Source: an uncultured Mycobacteriaceae bacterium (GTDB lineage Bacteria > Actinomycetota > Actinomycetes > Mycobacteriales > Mycobacteriaceae). From it: a stretch of DNA of 64,000 nt. Of the stretch, positions 31,504 through 34,772 are shown one piece after another. The stretch is taken from positions 138,400 to 202,399 of the forward strand of contig CADEGF010000004.1 of NCBI GenBank assembly GCA_902826815.1. The letters run 5' to 3'. A model generated the notes under the pieces. It was not told the DNA's origin. It did not search any database and was given only the letters and a program-made list of their open reading frames with translations. Made by a program: the position numbers and the translations under genes. The first letter of the stretch is position 1. Each line of letters opens with the position of its first letter.

Positions 31504-31565
31504 TTACAGCAACTCCAAACGTCGGGCGGTCGGAAACGTCGTGACGAGGGTACCGTGCGGTTTCC
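31504..31565 (-). pseudogene. dprE1 scar: fused spacer, first and last codons
   Basis: Reading toward dprE2, 31528-31565 repeats (37 of 38 bases) the spacer and first codons of the intact dprE1 at 34735-34772. The only difference turns the dprE1 start ATG into ACG. After codons for F-P-T the sequence jumps to A-R-R-L-E-L-L-stop, the exact C-terminus of DprE1, and then the dprE2 ATG. Nearly every codon of that tail differs synonymously from the intact copy, so it is not a recent copy. This is what remains of an older dprE1 after deletion of about 445 codons. Confidence 0.85.
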
Positions 31566-31633
31566 CGCCGCCGCCGCAGCCATTGGCCCCTCCTCCGCAC
31601 GGAAGAAGGGGCCAACGGGTTGAGCTTGTGCGG

Positions 31634-33013
31634 CTACCCGACCCCGGTGCTGCCTTCGCCGGTGCTGCCACCACCAGTGCCGTCACCGGTGGCGCCGCCA
31701 CTCGGCTTGACTGTCTTGTTGCTGCCACCGCCGATCCGGTCCGCTATCCCCCTGAGCCCGTCACGGATCTTCGTGATGGTGCCCCGCACCTGGTCGCGGG
31801 CATCGGCGAACGCCGCTTTGGCGCGTTCGCCGGGCTTGGTCGCCGCCCTGCCGGTCGTTGCTTGGCCGTCGTTGCCGTTGGCTGTCGAGACGGCCGTGTC
31901 GTTCTCCGTCACCGTCACGTTGCTCGCGGTGAGGGCCGCGTCGGACGCATTGATCTCCTTCGTTTCTTGGGTCTCCGCGACCTTCTTTTCTCCTGTGTCG
32001 ATGACGTTGGCTTCCGGGGCCACGTTCAACGTGAACGTGGAGGTCGTCGAGCCCACCGCGGCAGCGTGCGACGGCGCACGCTGCGATTCACTTGAAAACT
32101 CTGTCACTTCCGCCGGCGGTCGCCACGCGGCCTGGGCGATCCCGGCGACCGCATTGACCACCGGGCCGACGAGGGTCTGCACGGCCCCGGCAAAATCGCC
32201 TGCGCTGGCCCTTTCGATCGCAGCCGGTACGGCCATCTCGAGGTTCTGGCCCAACTGAGGAAGGAGCACGGTGGCCGCGCCGAAGGCAGGGATGAGCCCC
32301 GGCACCGCTACTGCGGCGATTGTGGCGCCGGCGATGAGCATCGGGCCGGTGAGTGTTTCCAGAGCGCCTTGTAGATCACCCGATGTGGCCTGATCTATTG
32401 CGGCAGGGATAGCGGCCTGAAGGCCGGTGACCATCGCGGGGATGCCAGTGACAACGGTAGCGATGATCGGAATAAGCCCTGGCGCGGCCACCCCCGCGAT
32501 TCCCAGGGTTCCACTGAGCACCGGGCCGGCGAGGACCTGCAGAGCGCCGGGGATATCGCCCGAGAGGGCCAGGTCGATCGCGGCGGGGATTGCAATCTGA
32601 AGGTTGGTGAACATTTGAGGGACAAGCAAGTTGACAGCGGCGATGATCGCGCTGATGTCTGCGGTCGATCCCGTCGCGATCCCACCGGCCGCGTTGAGCA
32701 CGATGCCGGTCAGGGCTTGCAGCACTACGGCCGGATCATCGCTCTGGAAAGCCAAGGGAACGTTCATGATCAGGTTCCTCAACGCCTCGCCCGTCGGACT
32801 GATCACCGCGATGTCGGGGATCTGGTCGAGCAGGGCCACCCCCACGCTCGCGCCGCCGAAGTAAAGGTCGCTGAACAGTTGACTGGGAGCCGCGGTCAGT
32901 TGGACTGCGGGGACCGCGATATCGGGTGGGGGTGCTAGTGGAGCGACTGCGATGACACTTGCTCCAACCAGCGCAACCCCTGCGGTGGCGTATGGACGAA
33001 TTGATGCGTGCAT
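31634..33013 (-). CDS. Exported repeat protein inserted between dprE1 and dprE2
   Basis: Unrecognised 459-residue protein. The start at 33013 follows a GAAGGG-type ribosome site; an in-frame ATG at 33082 is less likely. The N-terminus (RPYATAGVALVGASVIAVAPL) is a signal-like or membrane helix seen in many paralogous mycobacterial envelope proteins. Residues 141-164, 201-224 and 261-284 are three copies of A(I/V)PAAI(D/E)xAxSGDxxGAxxxLxGP at exactly 60-residue spacing, with PGLIP in the first two units; a degenerate unit starts near 85. A low-complexity polar region and a Gly/Ser/Thr tail (about 430-459) end it. No PE or PPE motif. It interrupts an otherwise conserved operon. The family name is not known to me. 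Confidence 0.75.
   Translation of the reverse strand: MHASIRPYATAGVALVGASVIAVAPLAPPPDIAVPAVQLTAAPSQLFSDLYFGGASVGVALLDQIPDIAVISPTGEALRNLIMNVPLAFQSDDPAVVLQALTGIVLNAAGGIATGSTADISAIIAAVNLLVPQMFTNLQIAIPAAIDLALSGDIPGALQVLAGPVLSGTLGIAGVAAPGLIPIIATVVTGIPAMVTGLQAAIPAAIDQATSGDLQGALETLTGPMLIAGATIAAVAVPGLIPAFGAATVLLPQLGQNLEMAVPAAIERASAGDFAGAVQTLVGPVVNAVAGIAQAAWRPPAEVTEFSSESQRAPSHAAAVGSTTSTFTLNVAPEANVIDTGEKKVAETQETKEINASDAALTASNVTVTENDTAVSTANGNDGQATTGRAATKPGERAKAAFADARDQVRGTITKIRDGLRGIADRIGGGSNKTVKPSGGATGDGTGGGSTGEGSTGVG
32114..32593 (-). repeat. In-frame tandem 180-bp repeats in the inserted gene
   Basis: Units begin at 32593, 32413 and 32233 (reading down the minus strand) and encode 60-residue repeats without any insertion or deletion; the third is conserved for only about 36 residues. 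The fixed spacing suggests a structural repeat such as paired helices with the PAAI/GAL segments in register. Confidence 0.8.
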
Positions 33014-33363
33014 TGCTGGGCCCTTCGGGTGTGATGTGATGCCGGACACAAGCAACATACCTGAGAAAAACCTGTGTGCCATCCAAAATCGCTAAACTAG
33101 AACGTGTTACTAAAATCCCGGTGTGGGTGTACACATAATATAAAGTCTAGTTAGCAAGTTAGCTGAAACTGAAATAGCACGGCGCTCACGTGCAAGAATA
33201 CGTAATATATAGATTGCTATTCGACTCACGAGAGGGTCAATTTGTCGCGCTCCGGCCTCAACTGCGACTGGCGTTGGTGAATGCCTGAAGTCGCGGAAGA
33301 CGCGCGCGGCGAGTTAACACCTGTCAAGATCGGATCGAGTGGTGCCGCAGCGCCGCGATTTAG
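33014..33363 (-). promoter_or_regulatory. AT-rich leader between dprE1 and the inserted gene
   Basis: A 350-bp stretch without a credible gene. Its middle (about 33095-33240) is markedly AT-rich, including ACATAATATAAAG and ACGTAATATATAG, unlike any other part of the window. On the minus strand GCTAACT occurs twice in tandem just before TTTATATTATG (about 33134-33163), a plausible promoter for the repeat-protein gene. Base composition suggests foreign origin or an unusually strong independent promoter. The remainder, next to the dprE1 stop, shows nothing recognisable. Confidence 0.45.
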
Positions 33364-34746
33364 CTATAGAAGTTCGAGGCGGCGGGCCATGTCCGAGGCG
33401 AATACGCCGTCGGGATCGACCTTGCGGCGCACGGCGATCCACTCGTCGATGCGCGGGTACATGGCGTGGAAGGTGTCGGCGGTGGTGCGTGAGTCCTTGG
33501 CCGTGTACAGCCGGCCGCCGAATTCGAGTACGCGACGGTCGAGTTCGTTGAGGAACTCGTTCAGGCCGGGCTTGACCTGGAAGTCGACGCACACGTTCCA
33601 GCCGGGGATCGGGAAGCTCAGCGGCGCGTTATTACCGGGACCGAAGAGCTTGAAAACGTTGAGGAAGGAGTAGTGCCCGGAACGCTGGATGTCGGACATG
33701 ATGTCCTTGAACGGCTCAACCGCCTCGGTGGGTACGACCACCTGGTATTGGGTGAAACCTGCCGCGCCGTAAGCCCTGTTCCACTCGCCGATCATGTCGA
33801 GCGGGTGGTAGAACTGCGTCAGGTTCTGGGCCTTGCCCCGATACGACTTGCCTGTGCGGTACCAGAGTTCGGTCATCGCACCGAAGATGAACTTGTTGCC
33901 GAGGCCGTTCGGGAAGACGTCGGGTGCGGTGAAGTATTGCGGCGCATCGAATTTCAACGGATCGGCCTGCAGCTTCTTGGGAAGCTGGTCGACGGTGGCC
34001 AGCGAGCCCCGGGAGATCACCGCGCGGCCCAGCTTCGGCGGTGCGCTGATGGCGTCGAACCAGGCGCTGGAGTAGGTGTAGTTCGCTTCGCTGCCGTCGC
34101 TGTGGAAGGCGATCGTCTCGTCGAGGCCCGAGGTGACGTCGCCGTCGGCGATGAAGTACGCGGTCTCGGTCGGTGTCATGGCGATCGTGACGCGCAGGAT
34201 GATGCCCGTCAGCCCGTTGCCGCCGACCGTCGCCCAGAACAGCTCGGGGTCGGCGCCGTCCGGCGTGAGGTGGCGAATCTCGCCGTCGGCGGTGAGCAGC
34301 TCCATGGACCGGACATGGTTTCCGAAGCTGCCCGCGCTGTGGTGGTTCTTGCCGTGGATGTCGCAGGCGATGGCCCCGCCGACGGTGACCTGGCGGGTGC
34401 CGGGCAGCACCGGAACCCAGAGGCCGAGAGGAAGGGCGGCGCGCATCAGCTGGTCGAGGTTCACGCCCGCGTCGACGTCGACGAGGTGGCTCTCGCGGTC
34501 GACCGAGTGGATCTTGTTCAGTGCGGTCATGTCGACGACAAGGCCGCCACCGTTCTGGGCGTTGTCGCCGTAAGAGCGGCCGAGCCCCCTTGCGATGACG
34601 CCGCGGGAGCGGCCGTCGGCCGCTTGCGCCGATGCTTCTGCGACGCACTTGGCAATGACTTCCTGATCCGGTGTCGACAGCACCTTGGCCACCGACGGGG
34701 CGGTGCGGCCCCAGCCGGTCAGGCGTCGTGAGGTGGTCGGAAACAT
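33364..34746 (-). CDS. dprE1: Decaprenylphosphoryl-beta-D-ribose 2'-oxidase
   Basis: FAD-dependent oxidase of 460 residues (461 in M. tuberculosis) that starts epimerisation of decaprenylphosphoryl-ribose to the arabinose donor. FAD-binding VAO-type motifs: RGLGRSYGDNAQ (about 53-64), VLPGTRQVTVGGAIACDIHGKNHH (His135/136) and TVGGNGLTG. Cys386 in GWNVCVDF corresponds to Cys387, the residue attacked by benzothiazinones, and Lys417 in TAKDSR to Lys418, so the enzyme looks drug-sensitive. Start ATG 34746 is 31 bp after the gtrA-like stop. Downstream it is no longer joined to dprE2. Confidence 0.97.
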   Translation of the reverse strand: MFPTTSRRLTGWGRTAPSVAKVLSTPDQEVIAKCVAEASAQAADGRSRGVIARGLGRSYGDNAQNGGGLVVDMTALNKIHSVDRESHLVDVDAGVNLDQLMRAALPLGLWVPVLPGTRQVTVGGAIACDIHGKNHHSAGSFGNHVRSMELLTADGEIRHLTPDGADPELFWATVGGNGLTGIILRVTIAMTPTETAYFIADGDVTSGLDETIAFHSDGSEANYTYSSAWFDAISAPPKLGRAVISRGSLATVDQLPKKLQADPLKFDAPQYFTAPDVFPNGLGNKFIFGAMTELWYRTGKSYRGKAQNLTQFYHPLDMIGEWNRAYGAAGFTQYQVVVPTEAVEPFKDIMSDIQRSGHYSFLNVFKLFGPGNNAPLSFPIPGWNVCVDFQVKPGLNEFLNELDRRVLEFGGRLYTAKDSRTTADTFHAMYPRIDEWIAVRRKVDPDGVFASDMARRLELL

Positions 34747-34772
34747 CGTGACGAGGGTACCGTGCGGTTTCC
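34735..34772 (-). repeat. 38-bp direct repeat, copy at dprE1 start
   Basis: Covers most of the spacer between the gtrA-like gene and dprE1 together with the first four codons of dprE1. The second copy is 31528-31565, in the same orientation, in front of dprE2; 37 of 38 bases agree. The copies frame dprE1 plus the inserted gene, a 3.2-kb segment. Confidence 0.9.

What the first reader, a model, noticed from the sequence alone, without database searches (positions are those of the whole stretch)
31504..34772. Fossil of an older dprE1 in front of dprE2; the drug target gene appears duplicated or replaced
A 38-bp direct repeat (34735-34772 and 31528-31565) carries the spacer and first codons of dprE1. 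In the distal copy the start is ACG and the text jumps after F-P-T straight to the DprE1 C-terminus A-R-R-L-E-L-L-stop, joined to the dprE2 ATG. Its tail uses other codons than the intact gene at almost every position. So an older dprE1, once directly joined to dprE2, was reduced to a scar while a second dprE1 together with an unrelated gene lies upstream. Gene replacement by homologous recombination with foreign DNA, or old tandem duplication then deletion, both fit. DprE1 is essential and the benzothiazinone target.
Basis: partly seen in the sequence, partly recalled or inferred. Interest (0 to 1): 0.82.

Follow-up and report, generated by a model that had tools for sequence, protein, structure and literature searches.

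The report
Gene remnant kept as operon promoter
In this mycobacterium the essential drug-target gene dprE1 was separated from its partner dprE2 by another gene, and a short scar of a second dprE1, holding its promoter-like start and its ribosome-binding end, now sits in front of dprE2; a group of relatives carries a separately formed scar of the same design.

Summary
A 62-nt stretch before dprE2 (31504-31565, minus strand) is the dprE1 promoter region plus codons 1-4 (start ATG now ACG), joined to the last seven dprE1 codons and stop. The intact dprE1 ends 1.86 kb upstream, behind another gene. The scar is a dprE1 remnant, but the intact dprE1 does not look foreign: it groups with near relatives and diverges from them about as much as its neighbours do. 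Its odd tail codons are explained by function: the operonic tail carries the dprE2 ribosome-binding site (GGAG in 68 of 68 coupled loci). The remnant keeps what dprE2 needs once separated: a TANNNT box 7 nt before the old start codon, and GGAG 9 nt before dprE2. A different scar of the same design was found in 30 of 396 genus genomes, with furA-katG as insert in 20 of 20 fetched; M. smegmatis locus tags show that gene order. A third, weaker case is M. manitobense. No transcription start data were seen. Side result: dprE1 forms with Ala instead of the benzothiazinone-binding Cys appear to have spread between species.

The parts
34778..35191 (-). gtrA (GtrA-family membrane protein), upstream neighbour
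   Evidence: Pfam PF04138, E 2.4e-21
34727..34772 (-). upstream copy of the 46-nt repeat: promoter region and first codons of the intact dprE1
34754..34759 (-). TACCCT, -10-like box 7 nt before the dprE1 ATG (leaderless arrangement)
   Evidence: TANNNT-N6-8-RTG at 68 of 74 dprE1 starts against 83 of 4050 random windows
33364..34746 (-). intact dprE1, 460 aa, of the clade's own type; tail without GGAG
   Evidence: NCBIfam NF053785, 786.5 bits
33000..33300 (.). AT-rich stretch (GC 0.48) between dprE1 and the inserted gene
31634..33082 (-). inserted 482-aa gene; no close relative found, distant relatives of a many-copy mycobacterial group
   Evidence: 1 of 118 genomes (itself) at E 1e-15; at 1e-3 weak matches in 48 other genomes of 148 and at four other places in its own genome; no Pfam hit over cut-off, no NCBIfam hit
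31575..31620 (-). strong hairpin between the inserted gene and the scar; probable end of upstream transcription (inferred)
   Evidence: -31.6 kcal/mol, z -4.94, 0 of 200 shuffles as stable; not among the T-tract terminators
31504..31565 (-). the scar: dprE1 promoter region, codons 1-4 (ACG TTT CCG ACC), last 7 codons and stop, abutting dprE2
31547..31552 (-). TACCCT in the scar, 7 nt before ACG; a start there would give a 36-nt leader for dprE2
31513..31516 (-). GGAG inside the retained dprE1 tail, 9 nt before the dprE2 ATG
30709..31503 (-). dprE2, 264 aa
   Evidence: NCBIfam NF053786, 402.3 bits
28817..30694 (-). aftA-like ORF after dprE2 (listed ORF 28817-30889 overlaps dprE2; the start given here is a guess)
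   Evidence: gene name by position and recall

Best explanation
The sequence before dprE2 is what is left of a second dprE1 copy. The ancestor had the usual arrangement gtrA / dprE1-dprE2-aftA-emb. A DNA gain put a dprE1 copy plus an unrelated gene in front of the resident dprE1-dprE2 (by tandem duplication, or by incoming DNA from a near relative). With two copies present, one could be lost. The distal copy lost 449 codons in one or more deletions. What survived is what the genes behind it still need: a SigA-type -10 box spaced for transcription to start at the old start codon, and the dprE1 tail that carries the dprE2 ribosome-binding site. The scar thus works as promoter plus 36-nt leader for dprE2 and the genes after it. 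ATG to ACG stops the remnant being translated. The upstream dprE1, no longer coupled to dprE2, lost the GGAG from its tail. Shown by sequence: the remnant, the native look of both parts, the conserved signals, a parallel case in another clade. Inferred: promoter activity, the two-copy stage, the order of events.
For: Repeat and scar. Scar tail as in the native junctions of L003/L004; its 5' part matches sister L005's dprE1 start (GAAACCGCACGGTACCCTCGTCACGATGTTTCCGACC). TANNNT-N6-8-RTG at 68 of 74 dprE1 starts (66 TACCCT), 83 of 4050 random windows; before dprE2 in only 6 of 81 loci, all TACCCT with 7 nt, as many as the six named loci with the other scar; the window's own scar has ACG and is not counted. 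GGAG in 68 of 68 coupled tails. The other scar in 30 of 396 genomes, with dprE1, furA, katG, dprE2 in this order in 20 of 20 fetched, gtrA upstream in 17. In 19 distinct scars of that kind the old start ATG opens three different frames (2, 9 and 8) while CGCxCGGTACCCTCGTCACGATGT is the same: a nucleic-acid signal is kept, not a peptide. In M. smegmatis TANNNT is the preferred -10 and GGAG at -6 to -17 counts as a ribosome-binding core (PMC6448022, passages).
Against: No transcription start was seen for any scar. A sigma-70 scan that asks for both hexamers found no promoter in 31400-35300; the repeat reaches only ~26 nt upstream of the start, so no -35 region is shared. The window's own version was found in one genome of 396. 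No genome with two complete dprE1 copies next to dprE2 was found among 297. The sameness of the core in 19 scars is partly forced by the search pattern; only the six named loci found through dprE2 and the five bases left of the pattern are free of that. PMC3035642 reports (data not shown) that dprE2 could be disrupted in M. smegmatis (passage), so selection may act on the genes behind dprE2 more than on dprE2 itself.
Confidence: 0.77

Rival explanations
1. Gene replacement: the intact dprE1 (with the inserted gene) came from a distant donor and the old dprE1 was reduced to the scar.
For: It seems to have happened in relatives: L002 has a 73% dprE1 and L005 an 80% one between neighbours at 90-94% protein identity. 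In the katG group the intact dprE1 start (mostly ATGTCGACYACC) and its promoter differ from the scar's, so replacement may apply there.
Against: In the window dprE1 groups with L003/L004 (fork with L004 support 92, 14-row set 99), with fourfold divergence from L004 of 0.38 against 0.38-0.43 for gtrA, dprE2, aftA, embC, and 86-91% identity to L004 in every 40-codon window.
Confidence: 0.12
2. Same end state (a form of the best explanation), reached by capture of incoming DNA from a very close relative, one end homologous and one not, rather than by tandem duplication.
For: A gene without close relatives and an AT-rich edge lie exactly between the copies; the katG group has another unrelated insert in the same place.
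Against: No donor found; cannot be told from duplication plus insertion with these data.
Confidence: 0.4
3. The scar has no function; it is a decaying fossil and dprE2 is served by read-through.
For: No expression data; no two-hexamer promoter found.
Against: Hairpin just upstream, -10 box and GGAG intact here; GGTACCCTCGTCACGATG unchanged in 6 of 6 named loci of the other scar, found through dprE2, while the reading frame is free.
Confidence: 0.12
4. Assembly error (collapsed or misjoined repeat).
For: One genome only, draft of 141 contigs.
Against: The site lies inside a contig (the window is C4:138400-202399); a separately assembled clade shows the same design.
Confidence: 0.03

Closest known systems
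dprE1-dprE2 operon of mycobacteria (Rv3790-Rv3791 type)
   Same: Same genes, same dprE1 -10 box and dprE2 ribosome-binding site in the dprE1 tail
   Different: The pair is split; dprE2 has a remnant-derived leader of its own
M. smegmatis MSMEG_6382 (dprE1), MSMEG_6383-6384 (furA-katG), MSMEG_6385 (dprE2)
   Same: Unrelated genes between dprE1 and dprE2 (locus tags in passages of PMC3206020 and PMC6448022); the 20 fetched genomes of that order were picked because they carry a scar
   Different: Other insert, other junction (ATGTCCCCGAGGCTTGGAGCTGCGCTAG in that group); the M. smegmatis DNA itself was not seen here
Leaderless promoters of mycobacteria
   Same: TANNNT placed so that transcription would start at the start codon
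   Different: Here the codon is ACG and the box would serve the next gene, with a short leader
Duplication followed by internal deletion (ordinary gene remnants)
   Same: Both ends of the gene kept, middle gone
   Different: Both ends carry signals for the gene behind, and the outcome was reached at least twice

Membership tests
dprE1 remnant | 5' end of dprE1 present | tested here: met
   38 nt, 37 identical
dprE1 remnant | 3' end of dprE1 present, joined to dprE2 as in relatives | tested here: met
dprE1 remnant | middle of the gene absent, no second dprE1 in the genome | tested here: met
   one match in G000
DprE1 equivalog (NF053785) | intact protein above curated cut-off | tested here: met
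   786.5 bits, cut-off 500
Mycobacterial leaderless/SigA promoter | TANNNT 6-8 nt before the start point | tested here: met
   scar TACCCT + 7 nt
Mycobacterial leaderless/SigA promoter | transcription start mapped there | not testable with these tools
Two-hexamer sigma-70 promoter | -35 and -10 hexamers at 16-18 nt | tested here: not met
   0 found in 31400-35300
Horizontally replaced dprE1 | dprE1 relationships conflict with those of its neighbours | tested here: not met
   for the window; conflict seen for L002 and L005
katG-type scar | furA-katG between dprE1 and dprE2, junction ATGTCCCC and variants | tested here: not met
   window insert is another ORF and the junction differs

The most novel reading that the evidence does not exclude
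Splitting of the dprE1-dprE2 pair is a repeated evolutionary route in mycobacteria: dprE1 is copied upstream, unrelated genes (furA-katG; another gene here; unclear in M. manitobense) come to lie between, and the old dprE1 is whittled to a promoter-plus-ribosome-site remnant that selection then keeps as the start of the dprE2-aftA-emb unit. The same instability of the locus has let dprE1 forms with Ala at the benzothiazinone-binding Cys pass between species.
Probability: 0.45. Interest if true: 0.66.

Novelty: new variant of a known kind. Interest (0 to 1): 0.52.

Why it matters
DprE1 is an essential drug target and DprE2 its partner. A gene remnant turned into the likely promoter of a cell-wall gene unit, reached at least twice by different junctions, is a natural experiment on how operons split without loss of the genes behind. 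The order of M. smegmatis locus tags (dprE1, furA-katG, dprE2) means that this common laboratory model may lack the coupled dprE1-dprE2 unit, which bears on polarity in its dprE1 and dprE2 mutants. Published start-site maps of M. smegmatis can test it directly.

Tried and rejected
Foreign origin of the window's dprE1: disfavoured. Tail codons as evidence of two origins: rejected, they follow the ribosome-binding site. First idea that L005's dprE1 holds a clean block of the Ala lineage: not supported; one search shows an intermediate type shared with L044 (same pattern at 26 diagnostic columns). Two-copy intermediate: 4 of 297 genomes had two matches; G014 two equal matches on two contigs (perhaps assembly), G293 two halves, G147 and G161 a separate ~62-64% paralogue; in the stretches fetched from G147 and G161 no dprE2 lay beside it. 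None is the expected intermediate. Function of the insert: one Pfam hit below cut-off, no NCBIfam hit; only distant relatives, so I do not name a function.

Literature: no paper describing the split or a scar was seen in the listings (and one search returned none); passages were read by term in PMC3035642, PMC3206020, PMC5743821, PMC3260234 and PMC6448022. That is not proof that none exists.

Rows dropped: the dprE1 tree used 76 of 81 loci (80% coverage or more, no stop), the flank tree 75 of 81 (L002 is not in it, its contig is short), and 70 of those 75 had a dprE1 type. Both trees are quick ones without bootstrap. The M. manitobense scar rests on two alignments: 4 and 1 of 2000 mononucleotide shuffles reach the scores, and the tail score is reached or passed at one other place in the locus besides the intact gene; it may share its origin with the katG group, as they are in one clade.
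Full report
What is there. On the minus strand the order is gtrA (35191-34778), dprE1 (34746-33364), an ORF of 482 aa (33082-31634), the scar (31565-31504), dprE2 (31503-30709), then aftA- and embC-like ORFs (the last two names by position and recall). The repeat is real: 46 nt at 91%, the inner 38 nt with a single difference, ATG to ACG. 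The scar keeps codons 1-4 and the last seven codons plus stop of dprE1, in frame, abutting the dprE2 ATG.

Where the pieces come from. One search fetched the best 80 named dprE2 loci of 426 found. In 68 of the 79 loci that hold both genes (window included) dprE1 ends within 13 nt of dprE2, often directly at its ATG. The scar tail has the codons of those native junctions, and its 5' part those of the dprE1 start of L005 and L004. Both ends therefore look native. So does the intact gene: the dprE1 tree puts the window next to L004 and L003 (fork with L004, support 92; 14-row set, 99), the flank tree in a clade of L003, L004, L005 and the window (support 100). By flanks the nearest is L005, whose dprE1 is of another type. 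Fourfold divergence from L004 is 0.38 for dprE1 against 0.42, 0.43, 0.41 and 0.38 for gtrA, dprE2, aftA and embC.

Why the tails differ. In 68 of 68 coupled loci the dprE1 tail contains GGAG, 9 nt before the dprE2 start in 53 of 68; the 5 loci with gaps of 14-28 nt, L052 and the window's intact gene have tails without it; the katG group is mixed. The operonic codons are most simply held by the dprE2 ribosome-binding site; an uncoupled dprE1 is free to drift. GGAG at -6 to -17 is used as a ribosome-binding core for M. smegmatis (PMC6448022, passage).

Why the head is kept. TANNNT-N6-8-RTG is found at 68 of 74 dprE1 starts (66 TACCCT), against 83 of 4050 random windows; before dprE2 it occurs in 6 of 81 loci, the number of named loci with the other scar. 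A start on the scar's ACG would give a 36-nt leader with GGAG. A hairpin of -31.6 kcal/mol (z -4.94) separates the inserted gene from the scar, while the stretch just after dprE1 folds no better than shuffles (z -0.68). Against this, the scan for two-hexamer promoters found none and the T-tract terminator scan found no more than expected. Promoter activity is inferred.

A parallel case. A pattern for such scars hits 31 of 396 genus genomes: the window, and 30 of one other kind, ATGTCCCCGAGGCTTGGAGCTGCGCTAG and close variants. Named loci with it, found through dprE2, are M. houstonense, wolinskyi, senegalense, porcinum, aquaticum and sp. DL99. In 20 of 20 fetched genomes of the 30, dprE1, furA, katG and dprE2 follow in this order, with gtrA upstream in 17; four of the six named loci were checked for furA-katG and have it. 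In 24 loci read (19 distinct scars) the old start codon opens three different frames (2, 9, 8), yet the promoter core is unchanged (the core was part of the search pattern, so only the six named loci and the bases CGCxC to its left are free of that bias). The junctions and the clades differ, so the two scars are most simply separate events. M. manitobense (L052) shows a weaker third one. M. smegmatis has dprE1 = MSMEG_6382 and dprE2 = MSMEG_6385 (PMC3206020, passages) and furA-katG = MSMEG_6383-6384 (PMC6448022, passage), so the same order; a primer listed there for MSMEG_6385 reads like the end of katG (my reading). Its scar was not seen by me.

How it arose. Two copies must have coexisted if dprE1 was needed throughout; it is essential in M. 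smegmatis (PMC3035642, title and passages). The same paper says, data not shown, that dprE2 could be disrupted there. A tandem copy plus insert, or capture of DNA from a close relative, both fit; no intermediate was found in 297 genomes. The inserted gene has no close relative in 117 other genomes at E 1e-15; at E 1e-3 there are weak matches, some over most of its length at 27-32% identity, in 48 other genomes of 148 and at four other places in its own genome.

Side result. In the 76-row dprE1 alignment, 22 rows form a distinct lineage, all with Ala at the position of the benzothiazinone-binding Cys; 52 of the other 54 have Cys, and the two exceptions (L005, L044) share an intermediate type although their flanks lie apart. 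On the flank tree this lineage needs at least 6 changes (20 such rows against 50 others), and holding its 20 rows together is rejected (p-AU 2.4e-5; the group was named after seeing the dprE1 tree). An exact-codon pattern found Ala in 72 and Cys in 33 of 198 genomes, by hand count; 93 had no hit, since the pattern allows few codons, and hits were not each checked to lie in dprE1. Natural insensitivity through Ala in M. avium is known (PMC3206020, passage); the spread between species was not met in the listings.

Noticed in passing
dprE1 of L002, L007, L016, L067, L074 and others: A dprE1 lineage (22 of 76 rows) that always has Ala at the benzothiazinone-binding Cys and is scattered on the flanking-gene tree; pattern hits in 198 genomes: 72 Ala, 33 Cys, 93 none.
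   Followed up: partly
L005 and L044 dprE1: Share an intermediate dprE1 type with Ala although their flanking genes lie far apart; L005 is a sister of the window's genome.
   Followed up: partly
L012, L037, L039, L056, L058, L081, between gtrA and dprE1: About 2.8 kb of other genes lie between gtrA and dprE1, on the other side of dprE1: a second place of change.
   Followed up: no
L148 4073-5425 (G161), L150 6820-8172 (G147): A dprE1-like paralogue at about 62-64% identity, in addition to the usual dprE1; no dprE2 beside it in the stretches fetched.
   Followed up: partly
L074 (M. aurum assembly LT549889): Has Ala at the Cys position, whereas PMC3206020 states serine for M. aurum (passage).
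   Followed up: no
window 35191 and relatives: gtrA has a leaderless-type TANNNT box at its start in 70 of 70 loci and embC in 34 of 70.
   Followed up: no
window 31634-33082: Residues ~18-70 of the inserted protein match a many-copy mycobacterial group best (up to 67% over ~50 residues); weaker matches run over most of its length, four of them elsewhere in the same genome.
   Followed up: partly
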